DNA of 64,000 bases, taken from assembly GCF_905475395.1 (NCBI RefSeq), contig NC_058339.1, positions 37,891,172 to 37,955,171 on the forward strand, in the 5' to 3' direction. Made by a program: the position numbers and the translations under genes. Origin of the DNA: Chrysoperla carnea (lineage: Eukaryota; Arthropoda; Insecta; Neuroptera; Chrysopidae). Positions within the stretch are counted from its first letter, which is position 1, and the number at the start of each line of letters is the position of its first letter. The notes below the pieces were generated by a model that saw nothing but the letters and a program-made list of their open reading frames with translations, made no database searches and had not been told where the DNA came from. Shown here in pieces: positions 18,485 to 64,000 of this stretch.

Positions 18485-19060
18485 GGAGATATGAGATTGC
18501 AAAAAAATTGTGGTATAAAAATATTGATGCAACGAAAAAAATTTTGGTATAGGTGTTCATAGAATCATCTAATTAGTCCATTTTCGGTTGTCCGTTCGTC
18601 CGCCTATGAACACGATAACTGGAAAACGAAAAAAGATCGAGTTGAAATTTTTACAACGCACTCGGGACGTAAAAATGAGGTCGAATTCGTAAATGAACAA
18701 CATAAGTCAATTGGGTCTTGGGTCCATAGGACCCATCTTGTAAGAGATAGAACGAAAATTTAAGTGTGAAAAATGTTCCTTATAAAAAAATAAACAACTT
18801 TTGTATGAAACAAATTTTTTGTAAACATCACTGTTTACTCACGAGAGCACAAATTAGATGCGTTAGAGATTAGAGATAGAACAAAAATTTAAGTGTGAAA
18901 AATGTTCCTTATAAAAAAATAAACAACTTTTGTATGAAACAAATTTTTTGTAAACATCACTGTTTACTCACGAGAGCACAAATTAGATGCAAATTTTATA
19001 GTATGTATTACTATGGGATTATCAGTTATGTATGTGTGACATGTATTTCAACAATTAACT
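18485..19060 (+). repeat. Dispersed repeat family F1, copy 2, with an internal duplication
   Basis: It shows the F1 blocks in order (aaattttggtataggtgtt, a 'gaatcatc' block, gtccgttcgtcc, ggtcgaattcgtaaatgaa, gggtccatagg). A 129-bp segment is duplicated in tandem: 18744-18860 and 18873-18989 are almost identical, differing at one or a few bases, which marks a recent event inside an old repeat. The frame at 18895-19197 is a by-product. Confidence 0.65.
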
Positions 19061-29836: not shown

Positions 29837-32800
29837 TAACTCATAAGCTCTATAAATGTTGAAATTTTATCTGATTTAATTTCTCGGCCGTTCCATTCTT
29901 AATCAATACATTCATTACGCCACAACATTAGCCAGAAGTTATTTGAGGCATTGTAAAAATTAGCATTTATAGAAGAAAAGTACATACAATGTTTTACAAC
30001 ATTTCCACCATATTTCTTTTATTTTTTTATGTCATAATATTGTATTTTCATCTAATATGAAAATATTTTGCATTAAACTTTCTAACTCATCGAGAAGTAC
30101 CTTAATTTTCAAATACAAGATTCGTACTCAAAAAAAGACAGGTTAAAAAAGTTAGTTATTTTATAATAACATGGTATAAAAACTTTGAAATCAACAAAAA
30201 TTGGCTCTCTTCTACCAATTAAAAATGTTTTCACCATTCTGACCTGGTCTAAAAACATAGAATATGTAGTATTAAAAACATTCTCATATGTTATTTCAGC
30301 GTGAGAGAAACTGGCGAAGGCTGCTTCAGTAACTAGGGATTAATGTTTATTAAGTATTTATAACGAGAGAAGATGTTCATTTATGACTGCAATTGTACAC
30401 TTTAGTTGAAATAAATCTGAAACGAATTGAAATTATTTTTAACTAAAAAGTTCAATAAATAATTGTTAGCCAGATTTTTATACTCAAGTAGTAGGTGCGT
30501 TACGGTTTGCGCCAGGGGAAAAATTTCAACGATAGATATCATATGCCTTGAATTAATATCATCGAATTAGTTCGATAAATATTGATTTTACTTAAAAAAT
30601 GATTGTGCCAAAAATATTATTGAGAAATTTTCTTAGAATTTTTATTTGAAATTTTGGAAAACTTTTTATATTGAATAAAGTTTCAATAGATTTTAAACAG
30701 TGATAACGTTTGAAATTGGAAACAGTCTTCCAATTTCAAAGAGTAAGATAAGAATTTTCTTATCATCTCTGTTTCACTTCGTAAGAAAAACTCTTTCTAC
30801 TCTTCAAGGTATGATTTTTGGAGCTTCATAAATTTTCAAACATTCAAATTTTAAAAATTTTAAACAAAAATTGTTTGAATTATTGTTTCCGAAAGTCATC
30901 TTCACGTAAAATCAATATATATCAAGATATTTGATTGTACTAATCAATTTCAAAAACGCTCCTTTGAAGTTTCACGGGGGGAATGCCATAACTGAAAGTT
31001 TTTAGAGGAACCAACGATTTGAGATGACAGAGATTATAGAATTGGGTATGGAATTCGATTTCGAAGCACACGACAAACAATCATATAAGGACCCCATTCA
31101 GAGGTTAACTGAATTGTTCATCTAAAGATATGTTCCACATTTTTTGTTTGGGTAGTACCAATGTTTATAAAACGCCCGCTTCATGTTTTTATTTTTGTTT
31201 TTAAACATTTGATAATTGAAAATATTCATTTGTTTCGTAAACAACGTGTCATCACCTACGGATATTATAAATTCATTTTTTAATTGCATTGTGAGCATTT
31301 TTTAAATTTCGTACAAAAAAAACAATTTTCAATAAAACAAATGTTATTTTTGACAGAGTGCCTTTAAATTGGTATTTTTATAATTTTTTATGCTATCGCC
31401 TATACTCGAATTTGGTTACTAATAAAAAAAAAATGAATAATGGAAATGACGATTCTTGAAAATTGGATAAATAAAAAATAACTTGCTTTTTAATGGCTTT
31501 ATTTTGGAACTTCACAGTTAATAATAAGTAATACCTGATATGAGATAAAATGTTTTATTTTTAATTTTACCTATTTTTGTGCCAACACTATTTTGACTTT
31601 ATTAGTTTTGGCACAGAAAATGCTAAAAGAATATTTTTTAAGTAACTACATTCACTGAAAAACAACGTCGTATTTCTGTTTAAAGAGTGATTAATGAAAG
31701 GTGAAAATGGAGAAAAGTACTGAGAATTTGTAAAACATTTATTGAAATAGCCAGTTTTCTCTTATTCAAATGCAAAATATCTATAAATGGAATAAATATT
31801 TTTTTAGAGCACTTCCACCATTTTGGGGATAAAAAATCAATTTTTGGTCCATACGACAGAGCTATGGATTTCAAAATAATCATAAAAATTTGTTCGAATT
31901 TTCTTCGTTTATGGCAGTTTTCTAATTAATTTCGTCTTTCTAATTAATCAGTATTATTATTTCCATTCATTTAATAGAACTAAAAATAACCACACTATTT
32001 TTATGAAATAAATTTCGATTTTTGTCCCAATTTCCTATGTTACTCGTTGTTAATTTGGTGGTGGACTGCACAGACTGTAGTGAGCTATGTGCTTTAAACT
32101 TGACAAAACAAATTCCGCGTCGCTTTATCTATTGTCAGCCAAGTTTATCTATTGTCAGTCAGTTCATTTTCAGGTTTGGTTGAAAAATAACTAGCTAGAG
32201 AAAATTGATAATGTGTTAATGCAGTAAAAAGCGATCTCGGAAGTTTAGATGACCGGTGCATTTTACACACCTTTTAAATATTTGAGGGACAAATTATACG
32301 ATAAAAGAATTTTAAGGGTCATTAGCTGAACTATTATCATTTTTTATCAGAGCACGTTTTTTGCAATGATTCAACTAATTTAAATTATGAAAATCGCTCA
32401 CTAAACTCAACTAAATATAATTTAGTCCGTTGAACATTTTACGACCCCTCATTAAAATCAAAAAACATAATTTACTGACACAGTATTATGCACTTTGTAT
32501 CTGCATTTATTTTATTTTATAAAAAGTTTTTGTATGCACTTAAAACAGTTTTATTTTTTATTTTTAAAACATCATTATTATTGTCCATCAAAACAATAAA
32601 ATAGAAATAGTTGTACATTGTATTTAAAATGTTTGCGGATTACTGCCCATTAGAATAATTATGGTTTAAAAATATAAAATCTTTTCTCTGTCGTCATTAA
32701 AGAAATATATACATTAGCGAAAAGGGGTCATAAACAGCATCGTCATCAATTCTAAAGCCATAACATAAATTCTTTTATTTTATTATAGAAATTTTCATAA

Positions 32801-32838
32801 CGGTCCATTTTTACTAAACCTATTGTTTTTTTTTATAG
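29837..32838. other. Non-coding, presumably TMEM132 intron
   Basis: AT-rich DNA up to the acceptor of the first visible TMEM132 exon (ttttttttatag). I looked for a preceding exon ending in phase 1 with a signal peptide and did not find one. No repeat could be assigned with confidence. Confidence 0.45.
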
Positions 32839-35800
32839 GTCAAACATCAAAAGCAGTTGAAGTACATTTTGAAAACAAAGATGGCGGGTTCTTCTTAAAG
32901 CATGTACCCAGACAACATTATCAGTCTTCTGCAGATCTATCGGGTACATCATTGCCACCAAATGTTGGGTCTTCTTCAGAGACAATTCTATCGGTGGATA
33001 GATTTACAGTCTTTCAAAATTCCCAACCAATATCGGTGCGTGCCACATATGGTCCCTTTTCAACAAAACAGACAGTACCAGCTAGATATATTGTTCCTGA
33101 TCCGTTAGATCCAGTTTCCATAACAGAGAAGCAAGCGAAATCAAATGGAAGTTCGTCATTGGTTGTTGATATGCAAGAACTTAGTGCAGCTGCAACGCAT
33201 CACTTAGATATGTCAGCGCATATTGTACGTCATGAAATTCCACGTGACTCTCCTGTGTTACGTGTACTATTTCATACAGGATCGGACCCTGGCGGGCGTA
33301 GACAATTCTTACTGTCGAGGCATCAACGTGTGTGTATTGTTTTGCATGCCACTCTCCCTGGTCGAATTCCATTAACATCCGCATGCAGTCCTGATGGAGA
33401 GGATGGAGTTTGCCTTGCACAAATTGCAATTCCTTCTAAATGGTGGCCACCACTTCCACCACCTGACTCACAAATTCGACCAATGAAAACTCCACCACGT
33501 TTAGTACACTTAGCGTATTCTGTGCTGGAACCAAAACAAGGATGTGTTCCTCGTGTACAAATACAGCCAGTCACACCAATCGGTACAGTTTCTTTAGTAC
33601 CCGCAAGATCATCTTACAAAGAGCTACGTGCAGATGAGTACTTAACAATGCTAGTACCTCATACACCATTGTATCCATTATCCAGAATACATATTCCTGT
33701 ATTCCTTCAAGAAAGTTTAGACATTCCTATTACAATGTTTATTGTACGAGCAAGAGTAAAAAGTGGATTGCGAATATTGGGCGCAGAACCCAGTAACCCA
33801 CATTGGAATATTACAACAGAACTGAACCCAAAACGAACGGGGGCTACTGTCACAGCAGTTTACCGAGATAATTTGCAAAAAAGTGGACAAAACCATAAAA
33901 GTAATTCAGTACCAAAGTAAGTACTGATTTTTCACTTAATGATTTGGGGATATAATTAATTTTCTCATTTTGTTCACAGTGTAAATGAAATTTTTACATG
34001 GTTACTAGAAGTAGCTGAAGATAGTGCTGAATTATGGGATGGAGCACGGATTGTTTGGACAGTTCGTTATTTGGGTGCTATAGATATTGGCACATCCCAG
34101 AAAACAAATTATTCGCATAACAATCCACCTGTAGCATTTCAACAGCCAATTACAAGTGCTGGCATAACAATGGTTGGTGACGATCATGTGACATACGCGC
34201 CACATGTTCAAGATTTGTTCACTGGACAACAAGAAGGCCGTAAAAAGCTAACTGCTAGATTAGAAGTGCAAAAAGATGATATCCAGGCAGTTTTACCCAT
34301 AAGCAAAGTGAGTATTTAACAAAGTGATTTACAAATATCTAAAAATATTTGATTGTCTAAAATTAATTTTCGTTTTCCAGAATTGGGAAGTCATGAATAC
34401 AGCAGTATTAACTGGTCGTCAAGTCTCACAAACAATGAAAGTGTTTATTGTATCCCAAGCGGGGAAAGCTGCAGATGTTACTTTACAATCTTCATGCCAT
34501 TCTGAGGATGAAAGTGTTTTAAAGGTAAATGATTTCAAAAAAATTTTAGACAAGTTCCCTTTATAATCGAAATTCGTACACTTTACAGGTATCCTCATCT
34601 TGTAGTTCAGTATATGTAGACGGAACAGAAGCACGAGGATCTGTAAATGGGTCGGTTCTAGTAAAATATGGTACATACACGGGGTTGGCACAATTTACAG
34701 TATGGATGCCAGAATTTCCGTTAGAGATAACAGTGCCAGATGTGAGATTATCACAAATAAAATCGTGGAAAGTAATGTCAAATTTTATTAACCCAGCAAA
34801 ATCAAATCGACCGGAACGTTCTTATAACTGGCCAAATAATGATAATGGTGGAATGTTTACGGACGAAATGAATGGAATTGGAACAGACCAACCAGTATGT
34901 CGATTACGATATCAGCAAACACCAGTTGATGTATATGGTCGTTTCTTAGCTACAGATCATGATTCAGGACGTATTAGTTATTTTATATCCCGGCGTAGTT
35001 GGCTACGTGTTACTGATTTAGTAACATCATTGTTACGTGTTAGTGATCCCAGAATTGCTACTCTATCTGGTCGTATTTTACAAGGTCATACAATGGGACG
35101 ATCTGAAGTGCAAGTGTTATCTCCAATTACTGGACGAGTGATTGGTGCAAAAGAAATCCGTGTAGTGAATGATAAAGTTAGTATAACAAAATTATCAGTG
35201 AGCGTGATTTCTGGATTACAATTAAACATATCACCGGATAGTACAATTGAAAATGGGTATATTGCAGAAACAAGTGTAACGAAACGCTTAACAGCACAAT
35301 ATCAGGTACGGTTTCAATTCAAATTTCAAATCATGGAAAGAAATTTGTCACTCTTTCGTTTTTAGGAGGGCTTATTAGATATTGAACTAGATTTTTCGGA
35401 TGGATCCAAAATACCATTAAGAGATGTTAATGACGCTGATTATCATTTAGTTGTAGAGAGCTTAAATTCTGATGTTGTAGCATTTGCACCGATGGTTGCT
35501 TCACATCATCCTCGCGTCATAGCTATCGGCGAAGGTAATACTTTTTCAAATACAGAAATAATTCTCAATTCTATCAAATTAAAACTTTTTCAGGAAGTGG
35601 CGATTTATTAAAAGTCACATTACTTTTAAATGACGAATGTCGTCTGCAATCGAGAGGAAAACCAGCTGGGAAATCAAATGGTATTCTGGCGTTTACTTCA
35701 ACGTCTGTAGATGTTGATTTTACCGCGGCCGAAATTCCACACAGACCTGATTTTGTGCAGAATGATGGTGGAATGCCAATAAAAGATGAACATCATGAAC

Positions 35801-37250
35801 CACCTAAATTCCAAGCTAGACAACATCATTCTATTGCGTTAGGCCCACACGGGCGAGGAGTACCCAGGCATGCTGAATATCCTGTAAATATGACACCTTT
35901 AGAAATTGGAATGTACGTTCTATTAGCTGCATTCTGTTTTGCTATTGTGGTAAGTTGAAAGCAAAAACAAATTTTAAGTTTAAAATTAAATTGGATTTTT
36001 TTTTTAAATTTTAGGTTTTCGTAGTATCTTGTATTGTTTATGCTTCCAAATTTAAGCCACAAAATTTAGAAGGAGGAGTGATATTAAATGGATCTTCATA
36101 CAATACATCAAACAATTCTTCAATGGGTATAATGCGGGAAACTAGAAAAACACGTCCAACCACATTAAACGCTCACGATTGGGTTTGGTTAGGAAGAGCC
36201 ACGATTGGCTCAAATGGACAATCATATACTAACTCTCGATGCTATAATAATAATAACAATAATAATAATGTGGGTCCAGATACTGAAGAAAATAATGTAG
36301 TTCGAATTACCGCAAACCCAATGAGTATGAATTACTCGGATCCGGATGATTTAATAACAAATTCAAATATTGAGCTGATGCCCACACGTAGTGCCCAACC
36401 AACAATTGATTCGTCGACATATTCAAAGCGAAACTCAAACTCACATAAAAATTATCACCTGGAAAACAACGAAATTGCTAGTCGTGTTTCAAAACAAGAT
36501 ATTCCACCTGCAGTGCCTGCACACGGTATTAAAATAACAGATGATAAATATAAACCACCAGTTCCACCTCATAGAAATATTGGAGTAACAGCGCAAATAG
36601 CATCAAATAAATCGCCAGAACCAGATATTAAAAAGCACCATAAACATTATCGAAAAAATAATATACCAAATAATTTAACAGCAGATTTAGGCGCATGTTT
36701 AGTGCCTGATATACCAAAAAATGCATTCACATTTGATGATGCGTTACCATCAACTGCAACAGGTGTATTTCAGCAAGAAATATTACAACTAGCTGAAAAA
36801 AATAAATTAAAAACAGATTTAGATGAAGATAAAACTGAATCTACACGATTTGTAGAATTTCCTAAAGATGCTGCGGGAAATTCTAGTCTTTCAGGTAATT
36901 ATTTTTAAAATTTTTTCTAAATTAATCGAGTCTTTTTGTTAAACTGTTTTTTATCTGTTTCAGTGCGTGGAAATAGTCCAGAAGTAAAAACAGCAACAAT
37001 TGTAGGAAATCCTATGTTCGGCTCAAAAGAATTAGAGCCAAAGAGTACATCAGCAACAGCAAACACAGCCGAATTGGAAGAATTACAGTTAGATATGGAT
37101 TATGATCAAATTTTGAATTATTTTAATAATTTAAAGGTTCGTCCATACGAGAAATAATATTCCTAATAAAATTTTTTATACTTTTACATTTAAATTTTAA
37201 CGGTACAAAAAACTAAAATTACTTTATTTTTGCAGGAATCAAATGCCTGA
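32839..37250 (+). CDS. TMEM132: TMEM132-family transmembrane protein (detonator type), 5' exon(s) missing
   Basis: Nine exons join in frame: 32839-33916, 33979-34307, 34381-34524, 34589-35305, 35366-35534, 35594-35949, 36015-36894, 36964-37135 and 37236-37250. They give 1285 codons plus stop, entered in phase 1. TMEM132 proteins are type I membrane proteins with an N-terminal cohesin-like region and tandem Ig-like domains, tied in animals to cell adhesion and actin regulation. The family match rests on the RARVKSGLRILGAEPSNPHW and LNPKRTGATVTAVY blocks, the whole ectodomain order, and one helix (IGMYVLLAAFCFAIVVFVV, about residues 917-940) split by an intron. The tail of about 340 residues has a run of eight Asn encoded by AAT/AAC, proline-rich patches (PPVPPH), and an AFTFDD block resembling a WAVE-complex-binding (WIRS) motif. 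The last exon encodes only ESNA. The signal peptide exon lies upstream. It is a host gene with no breaks seen. Confidence 0.93.
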
Positions 37251-44409: not shown

Positions 44410-47400
44410 TCAAACAATTATTTCATACAGTTGTTGAGATTCCAAATTCATTTCAGGAGTAAAGTTAATAATACGATAATAAACATTTAAATGCTGCTGA
44501 AATGCATCTGAATCTACATCTAAATTTGGATTTTCAATACATGTTCCAAAATTAGTAACAACACAAATTGGAATATAGCCATTATATGATTGATAATTAA
44601 ATCCTTTATCAATATTTAAATTATGTAACGTATTCATCATTTGAAAATAACATATGCATTGTATGGGGTTCTTAAAAAATATAAAAATTTTTAATTTAGA
44701 ATTCACAAAAAAATCTACGTCCACAAAAGTTACATTATTGGAGTAAATTGTTAAATTTTCCACTGAACTATTTTTTAAAGCCAACGGAGATAAATAATGT
44801 AAATTATTAAAATCAAAATTAACAGATCTTAGTGATTGTAAATTTAAAAATATATTATCTGGCAATATTTTTAATTTATTAGCAGATAAATTAATTTCTT
44901 GTAAATTTTTTAAACTTGTAAATAGTCCTGTTGGTAAAATTTCTAACAAATTATGGCCTAAATTTAAAGATTTTAAGTCAATCAAGGAACGAAAAGCTTC
45001 GGGATCAATTTCATGAATTTTATTCGATTGTAAACTCAGTTTATTTAAATAAACTAACGGCGAAAATACTTCGTTATTAATCACCGTTAATTGATTAGAA
45101 TCAATCGTTAAGTATGTTAATTTTGAATAATTATCATGGTGATAATTTACTTTCAAGTCAAAACAATTTTTATGTGATTTTCTAAAATTTACAAAGTCTA
45201 AATTTAAGTTGAAATTCATATTTATCAGCGTAAAATTTAGAATTATGTTGTTTAGATATAAATCTAATTTATCAACTAAGAAATGATTGATATTTGTTGA
45301 ATTTTGCTCCATGAAATCAACAAATATTTTTTCTGGAATTTCCTCTATATTCTTTCCTAATAATTTAAAAATTTTATCAAATGGATTATCGGTAAATAAT
45401 AACATTTTTATTTTATTTTCAAAATCAACTAACAAATCAGATACTGTTGGAATTTCAAAACAAAATTCATTAAATATATTCTGTTTATTAGTATTGGCTA
45501 ATAATTTAAACAATTGATCTGGAATTTCAGTAATATTATTTACTGATAAATCTAAATATTGTAAATTGCCTAAATTAGAAAAAGATTCATCATCAACTAA
45601 TCTAATGGAATTGTTCTTAAATGATAATATTTTTAAATCGGTTAAGGGATCAAATATTTTATTTGGTATGTCAACCATCCTGTTTACTGATAAATCTAAA
45701 TACTTTAAATTATTCAAATTTTCAAAACAATTATCATCAAATGAATTTATTTTATTATCCCGTAATAATAACGCATCTAACTTTTCTAGCGAGTTGAAAA
45801 CGTTTTTGGGTATTTCTATTATTTTGTTTTCTGATAAATCCAAATATTCTAGTTGGTTTAAATTTTCGAAACAATTATCAACAAATGAATTTATTTCATT
45901 TTGTTTAAAAGATAAAGCTTTTAAAAAGCTTAAAGAATTTAATATTTTATCGGGTACTTCAATTATCTTATTTGCTGAAAAATCTAAATACAATAATTGA
46001 TGTAGATTTTGAAAAGAATTTTCATCAAATAAATATATTAAATTTTCTTTTAGAGATAATATTTTTAACATTTTTAATGGATCAAATATTTTTTCTGACA
46101 CTTCAGTTAAATTGTTTTCTGATAAATCTAAGATGCTTAATTTGTGCAAACTTTTAAAACATTCATCATCAAAAGAATTAATTTTATTATTTTTAAGTAA
46201 TAAGACTTTTAATTCTCTTAAGGAATTAAATATTTTATTAGGAATTTCATTCATCTTGTTTACTGATAAATCTAAGTATAATAATTGATCCAAACCAACA
46301 AATCCATTTTCATGAAAAGAATCTATTAAATTATTCTGTAATTTAAGAATATTTAATGAATGTAATTTATCAAAAACTAAAATTGGAATTTCGTTTATCT
46401 TGTTTGCTGATAAATCTAAATAAAATAAATTATTCAAATTTGTAAAACAATCATCCACAAATGTATCTATTAAATTATTATTAAATAAAAGAACTTTTAA
46501 TTTTATTATTGAATTAAAAACTTTTTCTGGAATTTCGTCAATCTTGTTTACTGATAAATCTAAATATTGTAATTTACTTAAATTTACAAAACAGTTCTCA
46601 ACAAACGAATCTATTAAATTATTTCTTAATACAAGTACGTTTAAAATATTTAATGAATCGAAAACTTTTTCAGGAATTTCATTTATCTTGTTTGCTGATA
46701 AATCCAAATACGTTAATTTATTTAAATTTATAAAACTTTCGTCACCAATTGAACTGATTGAATTATTATTAAGTAAAAGTATTTTTAGTTCTTTTAAGGA
46801 GTTAAATATATCATTAGGAATTTCTGCCATATTATTTAATGATAAATCTAAGTATAATAATTCAAATAAATTTGAAAAACCATTTTCATGGAATGAATTG
46901 ATTAAATTATCTTGTAATTTTAGTATTTTTAATATAGGTAACGTATCAAATACTCTTATTGGAATTTCGCCTATGTTGTTTACTGATAAATCTAAATAAA
47001 TCAATTTCTTTAAATTCATAAAACAATAATCAACAAATGAATTTATTGAATTATTATTCAATAAAAGTACTTTTAATTCGTTTAACGTATCAAATACTTT
47101 TTCTGGAATTTCAATTATCTTATTTGTTGATAAATCTAAAAATGATAATTGCTGTAATTTGATAAAACAATCATCGTCAAATATGTCTATTAAATTATTA
47201 TTGAGCAAAAGTACTTTTAAATTTGTTAACGAATTAAAAACTCTATCAAGTAATTCCGTTAACTTGTTTACTGATAAATCTAAGTGTGTTAACTGATTTA
47301 AATTTACAAAACATTTTTCATCAAAAGATTTAATTAAATTTCTATTTAATTTTAATACATTTAACGAAATTAATGAATCAAAGACATAATTTGGTACTTC

Positions 47401-49291
47401 AATTATCTTGTTTACTGATAAATCTAAGAATAATAATTGTTTCAAATTATTAAAGCATTCTTCATCGAAAGTGCTTATTAAATTATCATGTAATGAAAGA
47501 AATTTTAAATTTGTTAACGAATCAAAAATTTTATTTTCTACTCCCGTTAACTTGTTTACTGATAAATCCAAGTGTGTCAACTGATTTAAATTTACAAAAC
47601 TGTCTCCGTCTATCGATTGAATAGAATTTTCATTGAGTAAGAGAACTTTGAGATTATTTAACGAATCCAATATTTCATTTCGTATCTCCTTAATTTGATT
47701 ATTCGATAAATCTATGTAAATTAATTGATGTAAATTTGCAAAACAATTTTCTTCAAAATAATTGATTAAATTATTTTTTAAAGATAATATTTTTAAGTTT
47801 GTATTAAATATTTCGTTTGGTATAATTGCTAATTTATTGTTATTCAAATTTAATTTTTCTAAAGTAGATGGAAAAATATTTTTTGGTATTGTCTGTAAAA
47901 AATTAGAAGATAAATCTAATTCTTTTAAATTTACTAAAAAGATAAAGGAATTTGATTGTAAATTTAGTAGACGATTTCCTTTCAAATTCAGATATTCTAT
48001 ATTATTTGTTTTAGGTATAAAAGTATTTTCTGGTAAAAATACAATACTTCCATTTAGTTTTATTCGATTATTAGCTAAATCCAAATATTTTAACTGTGGA
48101 ATATCTCCAATACAATTTGGTATTGTTTCTAGAAAATTATAACTTAAATTTAATTTTTGTAAATTATTTAATGATTCAAATGCATTCTTTTCAATTACTC
48201 GAATTCGATTGCTATGTAAATCTAGTTCTTCCAATGCATGTAAACCTAAAAATATGTAATTTTGAAGAGTTTCAATTGATGAATTTTGTAGAAATAATTT
48301 TTTTAATTGAATTAAGCCATTCAGTGATTTTTGTTCGATATATGTTAAAAAAACATTGTGTATTAGATATAATTCATTTAATTTTACGAGGTTTTTAAAT
48401 GAATTTTCTTCAATTCTTGCAATATTTGTGTCCTGTATCCTTAATGACTGTAAAGATGGTAATTTAATCGCTTCTGATCGTAAGAATGTTTCAAGTTTTC
48501 CATGGTAATTCAGTTGATTTACCGTACTCTGAGAAAAATATAAAATAAAATAATTTTTAATATTTGAGAAGAGTTTAAGTTTTTTAATTCAAGCAAAATT
48601 GATTACAAATAATATGAATAGCTTGTTCAAGCATACAAAAAGCAGATATTTTTTCCTCATTTTTCATTATGCTTTAATAGGGGATCGGACTAAATTTTTT
48701 TTATCACTTTAATTGAAGAGTTCTTATTTCAACAATATAAGAGTGAAATTGGTTTTTAAAAATCTTTGCTAGTACCTATGCAAGATATGAACGCTTTAAA
48801 AATTCCTTATTAAACAAAGAGGAAGATATCCACTAGTGACGTCATACGTGGGTATTGCCATATAGAGATTACATACAAAACTTTGTTTTGCTAAAAAGAG
48901 ATGGTCAACCTTTGAATGCAATCTTTGATTGCTTATAACTTCTTCGTTCTTAATCAATTTTAATTTCACTTTCAAATTTTGTCATGGTATCAAATCTAGT
49001 TTAACATTTTTTTTGGGTAAAATGGCCAATTCGACATCAGGATTATCTTCCATTGAGTTTTAGTGGACATAAAACGTATTTACTCGTTGATTTGTGTTTT
49101 TATGTTTTTTAGTAAATTTTAGTTAATAAAACAATACTTACCCGGATAGATGTAGATAGCGCATTAATTTCAGTTAAATTTGATGAAACATCACATTTTA
49201 CTATTTGTTTATTAACATTGCAAAAGCCATGAACTTTATAATAATTATTAAAACTAATTAATAAAAATAATATAAAAAAATTAATATGCAT
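44410..49291 (-). CDS. Secreted leucine-rich-repeat protein, gene 1 of cluster
   Basis: Two exons: 49142-49291 (signal peptide MHINFFILFLLISFNNYY and an N-terminal cap with two Cys) and 44410-48528. They join in phase 0 (GTAAGT donor, CTCAG acceptor) to about 1422 aa. Tandem 24-residue LRRs fill most of it. From about residue 319 to 1058, two LRR types alternate in a 48-residue module: a LDLSxNKIxEIP type then a LLLxNNxIxSF type, with 16 LDLS-type units countable. An LRR-free, Asn/Phe-rich island of about 130 residues (about 1058-1186) follows, then about five more LRRs and a four-Cys C-terminal cap starting NPIQCICYF. No membrane helix or GPI-type tail follows, so it should be secreted. The ligand is unknown. 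It lacks the extra C-terminal Cys pair of its two paralogues. Confidence 0.88.
48529..49141 (-). other. Intron of LRR gene 1
   Basis: A 613-bp intron with GT/AG borders, AT-rich. It contains a GC-richer patch near 48830-48860 (gacgtcatacgtgggtat) but no coding frame. Confidence 0.75.
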
Positions 49292-51251: not shown

Positions 51252-54200
51252 TTAGCAAAAATCTGGATCAATACATTTTTTTGGAGATATTTTAATCATA
51301 TGGAAATAAAATTTGAATACTTCTAAATTTAAATTTGGATCTTTTACACATTTTTCCAAGTTTGTTATTGTACAAAGTGGTATTTCACCATGTCTTGATT
51401 GAGAATGAGTACCTTGTCTAATATTAAATTTTTCCAATGTTTTCAACATTTCAAAATAACATTTACATTGGATTGGATTCTTGAAAAATGTAAAATATTT
51501 TAATTGTGGAGAATTAATGAAAAATTCGTCTTCAACAAATGTTAAATTATTAAAATGTACTGTTAAACGTTCCACTGGACTATTTTTTAATGATAACGGA
51601 GATAAATAATTTAAATTATTAAAATTTAAATTAATTGATTTTAGTGATTTTAAATTTGAAAATATATAATCTGGTAATATTTTCAATTTATTTTCATATA
51701 AATCAATTTCTTCTAAGTCGAGACAATTACTAAACAAACCATTTGGTAAAGTTTCTAACAAATTAAAGCGTAAAGTTATAAATTTTAACATATTCATTGT
51801 ACGAAATGCACCGGATTCAATTTCAATTATTTTGTTCGATTTTAAATCCAGGTTTGTAACACGAACTAATGATAAAAACGAATCCTTCCCTATACGAGTT
51901 AATTCACTGAAATTTATTTTAAATGAAGTTAATTTTAAATTATTTTTTTTATTTTTTGCATCTAAAACACCTTTATCGATTGTTTGTAATTTATTTCTGC
52001 TCAAATCGAGTGTACTTAAGCTAAATAATGTTTCAAACGTTTTTGGTTGGATTGTAATTATTTCATTTCCAGTGATTACCAATGACGTTAAGTATTTAAA
52101 TTTATTAAAGGTCCCTTTCAACAAATAAATAATATTGTTATCCCCTAAATTTAAAGTTTGAAGATTTCTTAAATATTCAAAATCGTCCGAATTTAACAAT
52201 CGTATGCGATTTTTGTATAAATTTAAAACCTCTAATTTTGTTAAATTTCTGAACAGCATTTTTGATAATTCACTTAAATGATTTTCAGATAAATCTAAAA
52301 CCTTTAATTCAACCATATTCTTAAAACAATCTTCATCGAATGATTTAATTAAATTTTGGTTTATTGATAAAGTTGTTAAATTAGTTAACTTATCAAAAAC
52401 GCCGTTTGTTAATTTTGTAATATTATTTGTATTTAAAATTAATTTTTTTAACTTGGAACCAAATACACTTTCATTTTGAGGAATTGTGACCAATCCGGTA
52501 AAAGACAAATCAATTTCAATTATTGATTGAAAATTAAAGTTACGCTTTTGTAATTTTAATTTCTGATTACCACTTAAATTAATATATTCGAAAGTTGATT
52601 TCGGAAGGACCATGCATTCTACCCCATTTTTAGGTGATCTAACCAATGTAAAACTAGTTAGAAACTCTTGCGGTGAAATTTTTTCTATGTCGTTGTCATG
52701 TAAATCCAAGTGCACAATTTTAGGTGTTTTTCTAAATAATCCTGCTGGTATTTGTTGTATTTTATTATTATCTAAATATAATTCCTTTAAATTATTTAAT
52801 GACTTTAATGCATCTGGTTCAATAATGCGTATACGATTTTCTCGTAAATTCAGAATTTCTAAATCTGTAAGTCCTTCGAATATATCATTTCCTATGACTT
52901 CTATAGCACATTTAGTTATTGTTAATTCTGTTAATTGAACTAATCCGCTAAAAGTTTTTGGTTGAATTACAGAATAATATTTATTTTTTTCTAATTGTAA
53001 TTCTGTTAAATAATCTAAATTAGCAAAAGCTTCTCCCTCAATTCGTTGAATGTTTGTGTCGTGGATTTTTAGTATTTGTAATTCAGATAATTTAAACGTT
53101 TCCGCAGGTAAATTTGTATCGTTGTTTCCAGCATAATTTAATTCTGTTATCGTTTCCTAAAATAATACATTCATTTTATTATATGTCTCTCAGTTTTTTA
53201 GTTAAGTCCAAATTCAAAGATTAAAATTTAGAAGTCACCAGACCAGGCCCGTGCGCAGGAATTATCAAAGGGAAGGGTTCAAACTTTTAATCGCCATGTT
53301 AGGTCATAAAGTCAATAAAAACCAAAAATTCTTTTTTTCGAATAAGAGAACTTAATAAGGTCAAAATGTGAAATTCAGTCACTGTTTTTCAATTAGAGAA
53401 TTCTGCGAGGTACAGTTTAGCCGATTTTCAGTCATTGTCGATCTAACGTAGATATGTTTTGAGACGAAGCAAGGTTGAAAATAAGCGTTCATTCGTCAAC
53501 GTTGTCACAGACACAACTGCCAGAACACAAAGCATTTAGTAGACATTCGGAAACGCATCTTTAACCCCGCCCGGCAATGTGTTTTCGTCAAAGGTAAGCT
53601 TCCGCCTACCCAGATGTCACGGGATAAAATATTGCGATGATTCAAAATTCGAGCGTTAAGTCCGATCTCCTCGTTAAGATCCAGTTTTTCAGTTTGAAGT
53701 ACTCGACTCAAAAACAAAGTCAAAGAATGTACCTAGCTCAAAATATTTTTAAATTTAAAAAATTTTCACCGACTAGTTTTGGAGAAATCTACGAAAACAT
53801 ATTATCTATTTACTGTTTTACCATAAAATCAATGTTAAATATGTCTATTTTTGAAGGCATTTATTTATTTAAATAGTCGAACAACTCCCCCTAAAATTTT
53901 CATAATTGATTGTGACTCAGTTCAACTTGATATAAAAAAAAAACACGCTTTTTATGAAGTATTGCCTTTGTGTTCGTATATCCTTAAACATGTAGTTTTA
54001 AACTATGCAGTAGTAAAATAAATAACACAATTTTTTTTAGTCCAACTTGGCCGACATACTTATCAAGTGAGTGAAGATTTTAAAAGTGAAATGTAAATTA
54101 TGATAATTTTTATTGAATAGTTACCCGTATTGTTGAGGATAAGTTATTGACTTCATTAAGGTTTGATGTTTTATCACATTCGACTTCTTGTCCATGAACT

Positions 54201-54268
54201 TCACAATATGCAATTACATAATTACAATTATTTAAACATAAAATCAACAACAATAATAGAAAAATCAT
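51252..54268 (-). CDS. Secreted leucine-rich-repeat protein, gene 2 of cluster
   Basis: Exon 1 (54125-54268) encodes the signal peptide MIFLLLLLILCLNNCNYVIA and a cap with the Cys pair CEVHGQEVEC. Exon 2 (51252-53156) is open for 635 codons. The phase-0 junction falls after SSTIR, as in genes 1 and 3. The total is about 682 aa. The start was placed at the ATG before the hydrophobic run; an upstream in-frame TTG is not used. About 20 LRRs run through exon 2 (for example LKVLDLSENHLSEL), broken near residues 230-260 by a looser stretch, and end in a four-Cys cap (NPIQCKCYFEML ... CTITNLEKC). A short tail adds two more Cys (KKCIDPDFC). No membrane helix is seen, so it should be secreted. It is closest to gene 3. 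The intron carries an old hAT fragment. Confidence 0.9.
53244..53740 (-). mobile_element. hAT transposon remnant (ZMYM1/DUF4371 type), copy 2
   Basis: It lies in the intron of LRR gene 2. The minus-strand translation shows the hAT dimerisation block (VTTLTNERLFSTLLRLKTYL) at about 53440-53520, and an upstream part related to copy 1 (SRVLQTEKLDLNEEI at about 53670-53715), with the stretch between them mostly deleted. The 3' terminus CAGGCCCGTGCGCAGG at 53244 matches that of copy 1. The 5' end is missing, and stops interrupt the frame. Confidence 0.75.
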
Positions 54269-55272: not shown

Positions 55273-58229
55273 TTATGCGCAGTATTTATTCCAGTTTAAA
55301 TTGACATCACATTGTCTTGGTCCAATTTTAATCATATGAAAAAATAATTTGAATACATCTAAATTTAAATTTGGGTCTTGCACACATGTATCCAAGTTTG
55401 TAACTGTACAAACTGGTATAGCACCATATACTGAATCACGTTGAAAACCATGCTCAATATTTAATTTTTCCAAAGTATTCAACATTTCAAAATAACAATT
55501 ACATTGAATTGGATTCTTAAAAAATACAAATTTTTTCAATTGTGGAGCATTCATAAAAAATTCATCTTCAACAAATGTCACATTATTAAAAAATATTTCG
55601 AAACGCTCCAACGAATTACAATCTTTAACAGCTAGCGGTGATATATAATTTAAATTATTAAAGTTTAAATTAATTGATTTTAGCGATTTTAAATTTGAAA
55701 AAATATAGTCCGGTAATATTTTTAATTTATTTGAATATAAATCAATTTCCTCTAAATCCTGGCAATTACTAAACAATCCATTTGGTAAAATTTCTATCAA
55801 ATTTTCACGCAATATTAAAAATTTTAACTTATTCATTGTACGAAAAGCTCCAGCTTCGATTTCGATTATTTTATTTTTCCATAAATCAAGTTTCGTAACA
55901 CGAACTAATGATAAAAACGAATCATTTTCTATTCGAGTTAATTCACCATAATTTATTTTAAATGAAGTTAATTTTGAATAATTATTTTTATTCCTCGCAT
56001 CCAAAACACCAGGATCGATTGTTTGTAATTTTGTTCGGCTCAAATCAAGTGTAGTTAAACTAAATAGATTCTCAAAAGTTTTTGCTTGAATTAAAGCAAT
56101 TTCATTTCCAGTAATATCCAATGATGTTAAATATTTAAAATTACTAAACGTCCCTTTTAGTAAATAAGTAATATTATTATCTGCTAAATTCAAGGTTTTA
56201 AGATTTCTTAAATATTGAAAATCATCAAAATTTAACGATCTTATTCGATTTTTATTTAAATATAAAAATTCTAATTTTGTTAAATCTTTAAACAACATTT
56301 TTGAAATTTCGCTTAAATGATTTTCTGACAAATCCAAAACCCTTAATTCTATCATATTCTTAAAACAATCTTCATCAATTGAATTAATTAAATTTCGATT
56401 AATTGATAAATTTATTAAATTAATTAGCCTTTCAAAGATTCCGTTTGTTAAATTCGTAATGTTATTTAAATTTAAGACTAATTTTTGCAATGTAGGACTA
56501 AATATATTTTCATTTTGTGGGATTGATGTCTGGCCTGTATTTGATAAATCGAATTCAACCAAGTTTTCATTAAGGTGATTATTTTTTTTGTCAGGTTTGA
56601 ATCTTTTATTACCACTTAAATTAATGGATTGTATATTTGATGTGGGATATGAAGAGTATGCACCGTCAGTATACGATTCAACTATATGTGTAGCAAGATT
56701 TAAAGGTGGAATTTTTTCAATATCATTGTTATGCAAATCTAGATACACAATTTTTCGCGTTTTACCCAAAAACAATCCTGCTGGTATTTGTTGTATTTCA
56801 TTATTATTTAATATTAAATGTTTTAAATTACTTAATGAATTTAAAGCATTTGGTTCAATAACACGAATAATATTATCTGCTAAGTTTAAAGTTTCTAAAT
56901 CTCCAAGCCCTTCAAATGTATCATTTCGTATAATCTCTATTGGACATGTAGTAATTATTAATTCTGTTAATTGAAATAATCCGCCAAATGTTTTTGGTTG
57001 AATTTGAGAATAATATTTATTACTTTCTATTTTTAAATGTGTTAAGTAATCTAGATTTGAGAATGCTTCTCCTTCAATTTCTTGAATATTTGTACCGTAG
57101 ATGACTAATACTTGCAATTCGGCAAATTTAAACGATTCCAGTGGTAATTTTGTGTCATTCCTTCCACCATATTTTAGTTTTGTTATTGAATCCTAAAAAA
57201 TAAAAATGTATTAAATAATTATTTTGAAAGTTCATAAAAAATACACACACCAAAGTATTAAAGGAAAAATTTGTTTCCAAAAAGGAAATTTTTTAAACAC
57301 AAAATTTCAAACAGTCGTATCTCTACGAAAAATCATCGAATTTGGAACTGCGATAGCTCATTTGAAGACTGATACTTTCTAGTTTTGGAATCTATTGCTG
57401 AAAATTTTTTATTACATCTTGCCTCTTTGAAATTTTGTTAGAACCACTCGAAAGCTTGTTTTTTTTTTCTTGAAAATGAGCTATAAAAAATTTCCATGGA
57501 AGCTTTTTGGACCAAAATATACGCTTTCCAAGCAAAATTGACACTTACTTATAGATTTAAAATCCTGTATCTTTTGAAATTATCATCGCACTGAAATTTT
57601 TTTCATTCCAAAACTTAAAGTATTTTTTTTAAGCCTTGGATATTGTTTTGTAAAGACTTTTATCATTCCTCCGCCTTTTCGTCAAAAAACAGAATTGTTC
57701 CATGTTTTAATCGCAAACATGGAACAATAAATGAAACTTCCTTGACATTAACCCAACCTACCTACCAATTCTTCAACCTTGTATCTTAATTTTGAAGGTC
57801 TGTAGAGATGAGCAAATCGAAGCATCTTAGAAAGCATCGAAGAATACTGTTCCTGGGAATCTCCCTTTTATAACATCCTTCTATATAGGCCTATATACCC
57901 GGTACAGTAATCGTAAAATAGCAGAAGGTATAGGATATATTTCGTACCTACATCAGAAATCCTCAATAAACCGTGTTTTAGAGGTCATGAAACGGATTTA
58001 TTACACACACATCTCACCTTTGACTGTATCGACGGAGCATAAATCCTCTATCTATATTTTTGGGGAAAATGACTAACATTCTTACCCGTATTGTTGAGGA
58101 TAAGTTGTTCACTTCATTAAGATTTGATTCAGAATCACATTCAACTTCTTGTCCATCAACTTCACAATTTGCAATCACATAAATACAATTATTTAAACAT
58201 AAAATTAACTACAATAATAGATAAAACAT
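55273..58229 (-). CDS. Leucine-rich-repeat protein, gene 3 of cluster; signal exon has a stop
   Basis: Exon 2 (55273-57192) is open for 640 codons and aligns with gene 2 throughout: the same LRR order, the four-Cys cap (NPIQCNCYFEML ... CTVTNLDTC) and a Cys-containing tail. Exon 1 is recognisable at 58086-58229, the same 144-nt length as in gene 2, and has a good donor after SSTIR. Its reading is MFYLLL, then TAG (58209-58211), then LILCLNNC. The TAG stands where gene 2 has a Leu codon (TTG). No in-frame ATG follows in the exon. Either the gene has recently lost its signal peptide, or it uses another first exon, or the base is a polymorphism or assembly error. The clean long exon argues that any loss is recent. 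If made, the product would be a secreted LRR protein of about 687 aa. Confidence 0.75.
57193..58085 (-). other. Intron of LRR gene 3
   Basis: An 893-bp interval between the exon 2 acceptor and the exon 1 donor, AT-rich with no coding frame. Unlike the gene 2 intron it has no recognisable hAT fragment. Confidence 0.65.
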
Positions 58230-63074: not shown

Positions 63075-63569
63075 CTAAGAAACTAAATGCTTAAAACAGT
63101 CATATTGCATGGTACGTTTATCCTGTAATTTACCAATTGTGGACATATAATTATCCTCTTTACATCTTGCACAATACACACTAACACATGAATGTAACGG
63201 GCTACGAAAATAGTATTTTGGATCATTTAATGTTTTATTTTTACGATGTGCCCACATATGTATAGTAATTTCGACCACGGCTAATATTAATGTTAAAGCT
63301 GGATATACAAATAGTGTTGGTAATAAGAATAATACTATTGGGCTAATATCGCTATTAAATGGTAAATGTTTTGATCGAAATTCATCATCGTCGAAAATCT
63401 CTTTATTTTTTGTTATTATATTTGGCGGTATTTTAAATCGATGACTGTTTCTTCGATTTGTTGGATGTCGATATACATAAACATTTGGTCGTTTATGTGG
63501 ATATCGTTCACCAGTCTCAATATCGTAATCGATTTCGCCTGTTTCTAAATCACACATTTTTTTCTTAAT
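63075..63569 (-). CDS. Unrecognised small membrane protein, last coding exon
   Basis: A minus-strand exon starts after an AG acceptor (tattttgcag) at 63569. The first ATG (63557) has a purine at -3 and gives 160 aa; the 12 bases before it are also open, so the exon could be internal. The N-terminal half is basic and polar, with two DxETGE motifs (residues 3-8 and 12-17). One strong hydrophobic segment (about residues 72-97, ISPIVLFLLPTLFVYPALTL) suggests a single membrane helix or a hairpin. The C-terminal part has Cys 124, 129, 132 and 154, with a CVSVYCARC cluster that might bind metal or form disulfides. I do not recognise the family. Composition and length make it a convincing gene. Confidence 0.7.
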   Translation of the reverse strand: MKKKMCDLETGEIDYDIETGERYPHKRPNVYVYRHPTNRRNSHRFKIPPNIITKNKEIFDDDEFRSKHLPFNSDISPIVLFLLPTLFVYPALTLILAVVEITIHMWAHRKNKTLNDPKYYFRSPLHSCVSVYCARCKEDNYMSTIGKLQDKRTMQYDCFKHLVS

Positions 63570-64000
63570 CTGCAAAATAAAGATAATTTTTTTATAAACT
63601 TATTAAAATGATACATATTGGATCCTATCTTTAAATAGAGGTAGGTCTATGACCATAAACTAGTTAGCGCCATATATTTATATACGAAAAATTTATTTAT
63701 CAAAAAATTGCTCCAGAAATTCTCCTTCAGATTATACAATTGCTCCACTTAAATAATTAATAATTAATTAGTAATTCATTATTAAAAAATTTGAATTTCC
63801 AATTATCTACTTTTACATTTAATTATTTTAATTGTTAATATTTAAAAACAAATTAGTTATTCATAATTAATAATTTTTAATTCCCGATTGTCCCCATTTA
63901 CATTTACATATACATACTTCAAACGTTGAGGAGTGAGGATTGTATGACAAATTAATATGAAATTTAAAACGTCATATATTTCTAATAATGAATAATTGCC
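63570..64000. other. Upstream or intronic DNA of the 63-kb gene
   Basis: AT-rich, with several ATTAATTA-type words. No exon is seen before the window ends. Confidence 0.45.

What the first reader, a model, noticed from the sequence alone, without database searches (positions are those of the whole stretch)
44410..49291. LRR gene built from 16 copies of a 48-residue double-LRR module
Within a tract of about 2.2 kb, two distinct 24-residue LRR types alternate: a LDLSxNKIxEIP type and a LLLxNNxIxSF type. This shows that the unit of duplication was 144 bp (two LRRs), not one. The two paralogues next door lack this array, so the expansion belongs to this copy. A long, regular, secreted solenoid of this kind could be a structural or multivalent binding protein. 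Copy number may vary between individuals.
Basis: partly seen in the sequence, partly recalled or inferred. Interest (0 to 1): 0.72.

Follow-up and report, generated by a model that had tools for sequence, protein, structure and literature searches.

The report
Lacewing secreted protein with 16-fold array
A green lacewing gene makes a very long, probably secreted leucine-rich-repeat protein that grew by copying one pair of repeats to sixteen, while close relatives in the same genome carry that pair once or not at all; its job is not yet known.

Summary
Minus-strand gene A (44410-49291, two exons) of Chrysoperla carnea encodes 32 consecutive 24-residue LRRs (45493-47796), i.e. 16 modules of 48 residues. 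Two LRR types alternate strictly: mean identity 52-54% within a type, 30% between; 32 of 32 units match their own type best. So 144 bp was the unit of duplication. The founder is visible: genes B and C next door and three of four other close relatives carry one such pair exactly where gene A's array begins. None of the other LRR frames tested alternates like this, though 20 loci could not be read. The array is old: longest exact internal repeat 26 bp, silent divergence like that between the genes, frame kept. Recent copy-number variation is unsupported but not excluded. The protein looks secreted (signal peptide by eye, cysteine caps, no membrane span in exon 2). LRR proteins are reported in C. 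carnea larval venom; whether this is one could not be checked. Best reading: an elongated, acidic, secreted binding solenoid, possibly in the oral secretion. Paired-LRR modules are known from NLRPs, so the principle is not new.

The parts
49142..49291 (-). Gene A exon 1: signal peptide (by eye) and N-terminal cysteine pair, ends at a GTAAGT donor
   Evidence: Translation and splice donor; similar exon before gene B
44410..48528 (-). Gene A exon 2: all LRRs and the C-terminal cysteine cap, stop TGA
   Evidence: Open frame 1392 aa stop to stop, acceptor TTTCTCAG, Pfam LRR_8 E 2.2e-180
45493..47796 (-). Array of 16 modules of 144 bp, each one type-a LRR (LKvLlLnNNLInSFDDnCFxNLnQ) and one type-b LRR (LxYLDLSVNKIxEIPnKVFDSLxx)
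   Evidence: Autocorrelation, unit identities, shuffle test
45121..45492 (-). 124-residue island after the array, without regular LRRs, with short pieces resembling modules
   Evidence: blastn to the array with low-complexity filter off, best piece 56 columns at 79%; mostly pLDDT below 50
44413..45120 (-). C-terminal LRRs and cysteine cap shared with the close relatives
   Evidence: 55% identity to the gene B cap, E 4.8e-36
52236..52379 (-). Single founder-like LRR pair in neighbouring gene B
   Evidence: coordinates
56275..56418 (-). Single founder-like LRR pair in neighbouring gene C
   Evidence: coordinates
51252..54268 (-). Gene B, paralogue without array (exon 1 54125-54268, exon 2 51252-53156)
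   Evidence: model of exon 2 mean pLDDT 87.6
55273..58229 (-). Gene C, paralogue without array; its exon 1 homologue holds an in-frame stop in the signal peptide

Best explanation
Gene A encodes an extracellular LRR protein of about 1400 residues (about 162 kDa, acidic). SHOWN: it belongs to a small C. carnea subfamily (seven close members by their C-terminal cap). In gene A alone among these seven, an adjacent pair of LRRs, kept once in five relatives, was duplicated in frame as a 144-bp unit to sixteen copies, which then diverged while keeping frame, spacing and scaffold residues. INFERRED: the product is secreted and folds as a long regular LRR arm of over 30 coils, followed by a flexible or decayed island and a short capped second arm; it works as an extended, negatively charged, multivalent binding surface for partners outside the cell. 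INFERRED and weaker: it is one of the secreted LRR proteins that green lacewing larvae put into their oral secretion/venom.
For: Alternation and unit size. Founder: the first module of gene A aligns column for column with B260, C259, L009 253, L010 257 and L015 283; the six non-array LRRs closest to type a in the unit tree are the ones at that position in L010, B, L015, C, L009 and L016, and the smallest clade with all 16 type-b units adds only the following LRR of L009, C, B, L010 and L015 (midpoint rooting). Array only in gene A: of 24 frames with six or more consecutive LRRs the other 23 have runs of at most 11 and scores of at most 0.05; of 139 listed genome matches to an array query none outside gene A exceeds 44% identity. 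Selection: mean pN 0.28 against pS 0.51 between modules, pN below pS in 120 of 120 pairs. Secretion: signal peptide by eye, highest 19-residue Kyte-Doolittle mean in exon 2 is 1.25. Solenoid: a strand about every 24 residues in the model. Charge: array pI 4.7, net about -36. Organism: contig 1 of 139,979,878 bp and 337 contigs match the published C. carnea assembly. LRR proteins in C. carnea venom: PMC12758981 passages, PMC11319779.
Against: No expression, proteomic or binding data for this gene were reachable; the venom papers' supplements could not be opened. The type-b founder is less clear than type a: by mean identity several other LRRs (L009_373, L010_377, gene A 221) tie with the positional ones, and gene A 221 ranks second by tree distance. 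The island and a dip near residues 838-860 are low-confidence in the model (pTM 0.62), so one unbroken solenoid is not shown. Silent sites are near saturation (2 of 120 dS values undefined), so dN/dS and age are rough. No signal-peptide predictor was run. Twenty LRR loci asked for were not read.
Confidence: 0.5

Rival explanations
1. The array is neutral growth in a tolerant repeat protein: LRR number drifted up, the extra coils have no specific role, and function rests in the capped ends shared with the relatives.
For: L016 has a 24-residue gap, one LRR, at the same site; the island contains pieces that look like decayed modules. That solenoids tolerate whole-unit insertion is general knowledge, not tested.
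Against: Frame open over 1392 codons at 21% GC; key LRR residues invariant across modules; pN below pS in 120 of 120 module pairs. These show that the fold is kept, not that the extra length has a use.
Confidence: 0.3
2. A secreted immune or extracellular-matrix LRR protein acting inside the lacewing (adhesion or recognition), unrelated to the oral secretion.
For: Secreted LRR-only proteins are a normal part of insect genomes (10 in fly in a table of PMC2235866, passages); best fold neighbours include Toll-like receptor ectodomains, LGR4 and TOL-1, which is generic for this fold.
Against: No TIR domain in the Pfam scan and no membrane-span-like stretch in exon 2; no data on tissue.
Confidence: 0.3
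3. The array length is an assembly artefact or varies between individuals.
For: Tandem repeats in general are prone to both (general knowledge).
Against: Modules are 59-81% identical in DNA and the longest exact repeat is 26 bp, far shorter than long reads; the assembly used PacBio long reads. No second haplotype or individual was examined.
Confidence: 0.05

Closest known systems
Ribonuclease inhibitor / NLRP leucine-rich repeats
   Same: Alternation of two LRR types; in NLRP3 each exon of 171 bp encodes two LRRs (passages of PMC6642158).
   Different: There the LRRs are 28 and 29 residues, one pair per exon, RI class. Here both are 24 residues, of the other (S/T) consensus, all in a single exon.
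Secreted LRR-only extracellular proteins (eLRR, LRR_Only)
   Same: Signal peptide, cysteines at both ends, 24-residue LRRs, no other domain recognised.
   Different: Gene A has a 32-unit alternating array, not seen in the relatives tested.
Small leucine-rich proteoglycans (LRR supermotifs)
   Same: Higher-order LRR periodicity (PMC2637281 passages).
   Different: There repeat lengths alternate (21-24-26); here length is constant and only the sequence alternates.
Green lacewing venom LRR proteins (LRRP)
   Same: Same species; LRR proteins reported in the venom.
   Different: Not shown that this gene is one of them.

Membership tests
S/T (typical extracellular) LRR class | LxxLxLxxNxLxxLpxxoFxzxLxx consensus (as given in PMC6642158), 24 residues | tested here: met
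   32 of 32 array units at exact 24-residue steps start with the motif; type consensuses fit; Pfam LRR_8
Secreted LRR-only protein | Signal peptide, caps, no other domain, no membrane span | tested here: inconclusive
   Seven Pfam families hit exon 2: six LRR families and PF20919 DHU1_N, above its cut-off, which I take as an LRR cross-match without testing it; no membrane-span-like stretch; signal peptide by eye only
Ribonuclease inhibitor / NLRP double-LRR | Alternating 28/29-residue LRRs, one pair per exon | tested here: not met
   24+24 residues, array inside one open frame
SLRP | Alternating repeat lengths 21-24-26 | tested here: not met
   All 32 units are 24 residues
Toll-like receptor | Transmembrane segment and TIR domain after the LRRs (recalled) | tested here: not met
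   Exon 2 stops soon after the cap; no TIR in Pfam, no membrane-span-like stretch. An unseen 3' exon is not formally excluded
C. carnea venom LRRP | Peptides in the venom proteome, venom-gland expression | not testable with these tools
Hessian fly LRR effectors | F-box plus LRR (recalled) | tested here: not met
   No F-box in the Pfam scan of exon 2

The most novel reading that the evidence does not exclude
Gene A is a lacewing-lineage secreted scaffold whose paired-LRR lattice presents sixteen near-equivalent acidic sites at a fixed spacing of two coils, used in the larval oral secretion to bind or cluster prey (or symbiont) surface molecules: an LRR protein turned into a multivalent, polymer-like binder by duplicating a two-repeat unit.
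Probability: 0.12. Interest if true: 0.6.

Novelty: new member of a known kind. Interest (0 to 1): 0.35.

Why it matters
It is an unusually clear case in which the founding pair, the point of insertion, the unit size and a possible reverse event (one LRR fewer in one relative) can be read from one genome, so it is a good test case for how LRR solenoids grow. If the protein is in the larval secretion, it would give a concrete target for the unexplained LRR proteins of lacewing venom.

Tried and rejected
Copy-number variation as a recent event: set aside as unsupported, the modules are too diverged. A later copy of a four-module block: modules 6/10 and 7/11 are 81% and 80% identical in DNA, but at silent sites only 6/10 stands out (pS 0.27); 7/11 has pS 0.43, rank 31 of 120 pairs, so I no longer claim it. 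A membrane anchor in exon 2: not found. Frame-shifted modules in the island: the other two frames give many stops; only short module-like pieces are seen. NCBIfam matches to a bacterial fibronectin-binding protein and type III effectors lie far below their cut-offs and were taken as generic LRR cross-matches. PDB and viral fold neighbours are generic LRR folds and give no function. The paper on LRR expansion in Chrysopa pallens is not held; it and the Hessian fly paper are known here only as cited in PMC12758981. One search returned no paper.

Full report
What it is. The window lies in Chrysoperla carnea (common green lacewing): the genome behind it has 337 contigs and a contig 1 of 139,979,878 bp, as in the published assembly (PMC10116181, part 1 of 2 of the text read). 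Total length differs slightly (559.5 Mb held, 560.2 Mb published). Three LRR genes stand in tandem on the minus strand: A (44410-49291), B (51252-54268) and C (55273-58229). Each has a short signal-peptide exon and one long LRR exon; gene models are mine, from frames and splice sites, without transcripts.

The array. In gene A, 32 LRRs at exact 24-residue steps run without interruption (45493-47796). Self-identity is 0.52 at 48 residues but 0.29 at 24; in DNA 0.68 at 144 bp but 0.43 at 72 bp. Mean identity is 52.4% among the 16 type-a units, 53.6% among the 16 type-b units and 29.6% between types, though single pairs overlap (lowest within 33%, highest between 42%). The alternation score of 0.234 compares with a maximum of 0.136 in 5000 shuffled orders; 32 of 32 units find their best match in their own type.

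Where it came from. A search with the C-terminal cap of gene B lists 16 places in the genome, seven of them with E below 1e-34: A, B, C and the genes in L009, L010, L015 and L016. In an alignment of the N-terminal parts, the first module of gene A falls column for column on one LRR pair of B, C, L009, L010 and L015. In a tree of the LRR units of all seven genes (24-residue units, midpoint-rooted, support not examined), the six non-array units nearest to type a are the units at that position in the six relatives. All 16 type-a units form a clade of their own, and the smallest clade with all 16 type-b units adds only the following LRR of L009, C, B, L010 and L015. For type b the picture is less clean: by mean identity other LRRs (L009_373, L010_377, gene A 221) tie with the positional ones, and gene A 221 is second by tree distance. 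I conclude that the array grew from this pair, in gene A's lineage only among the seven. In L016 the alignment shows a 24-residue gap at this very site, one LRR fewer, which could be the reverse event. The unrooted gene tree does not make A a close copy of B or C: A is 41-47% identical to the six relatives and joins L015/L016 with support 0.955, on a long branch.

How unusual it is. In the 40 loci read, 45 frames of 150 aa or more hold at least four LRR motifs. Taking each frame's best 240-residue stretch, the highest self-identity at 48 residues is 0.448 (L017), but there 72 gives 0.446 and 24 gives 0.384; the largest excess of 48 over both others is about 0.06 (L015), against about 0.22 for the whole array of gene A. 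Of 24 frames with six or more consecutive LRRs (A, B and C included, frames with fewer left out), gene A has 32 in a row and score 0.234; the other 23 have at most 11 and at most 0.05. A 192-residue array query gives 139 listed matches in the genome (150 of 347 candidates scored); none outside gene A exceeds 44% identity.

Age and maintenance. Between modules mean pS is 0.51 and pN 0.28, dN/dS about 0.37 with 2 of 120 dS values undefined; pN is below pS in 120 of 120 pairs. A against B or C outside the array gives pS 0.43-0.62. Silent sites are near saturation, so this is rough, but the array looks about as old as the split between the genes. The longest exact repeat is 26 bp, which gives no support to present-day copy-number variation; no second individual was examined.

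Anatomy of the protein. About 1400 residues after an assumed signal-peptide cut, 162 kDa, pI 5.0; the array has pI 4.7 and net charge about -36. Type-b units have Asp and Ser at positions 5 and 7 in 16 of 16, and 10 of 16 type-a units carry Cys at position 18, as five of the relatives' matching units do. After the array comes a 124-residue island with short module-like pieces, then six LRRs and a cysteine cap. The AlphaFold2 model of residues 205-1392 (12-row alignment) has mean pLDDT 78.3 and pTM 0.62, with a strand about every 24 residues; the island is mostly below pLDDT 50, and a dip at about 838-860 may come from the alignment. Gene B exon 2 models better (87.6). Among the best solved folds are Toll-like receptor ectodomains, LGR4, SHOC2 and TOL-1, which is generic. 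Besides LRR families, Pfam lists PF20919 (DHU1_N) above its cut-off, which I take as a cross-match.

What it may do. LRR proteins have been found in C. [quoted passage not shown] PMC12758981, passages). The latter cites an LRR family expansion in another green lacewing (paper not held). A large secreted protein of an expanded kind fits, but presence in the venom could not be tested. My best reading is an extended, acidic, multivalent extracellular binder, with the oral secretion as one possible site of action. Neutral repeat growth and an internal immune or matrix role remain serious rivals.

Literature. Searches of the open-licence library for LRR with lacewing, Neuroptera, Chrysopidae or Chrysoperla, and for intragenic LRR duplication in insects, listed no paper that by title or abstract describes this array; most subscription papers are not held. 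Two-LRR modules as such are known (PMC6642158 passages).

Noticed in passing
window 58086-58229, minus strand: Exon 1 of gene C, similar to that of gene B, has an in-frame stop inside the signal peptide while exon 2 is open over 639 codons: gene C may be a recent or polymorphic null, or use another first exon.
   Followed up: partly
L016:1890-3689 (minus): The relative in L016 has a 24-residue gap at the founder pair: one LRR fewer at the site that expanded in gene A.
   Followed up: partly
L017:1349-3490 (plus): Another LRR gene with fairly even self-identity (0.38-0.45) at 24, 48 and 72 residues, as if grown by single LRRs.
   Followed up: no
window 32769-36905, plus strand: Open frames with TMEM132-family Pfam domains, N-terminal to C-terminal.
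   Followed up: partly
window 18743-18990: A 129-bp unit repeated 1.9 times at 99% identity, apparently a recent tandem duplication.
   Followed up: no
window 63078-63599, minus strand: A 174-residue open frame with a hydrophobic stretch (by eye) and no Pfam match at E 0.001.
   Followed up: no
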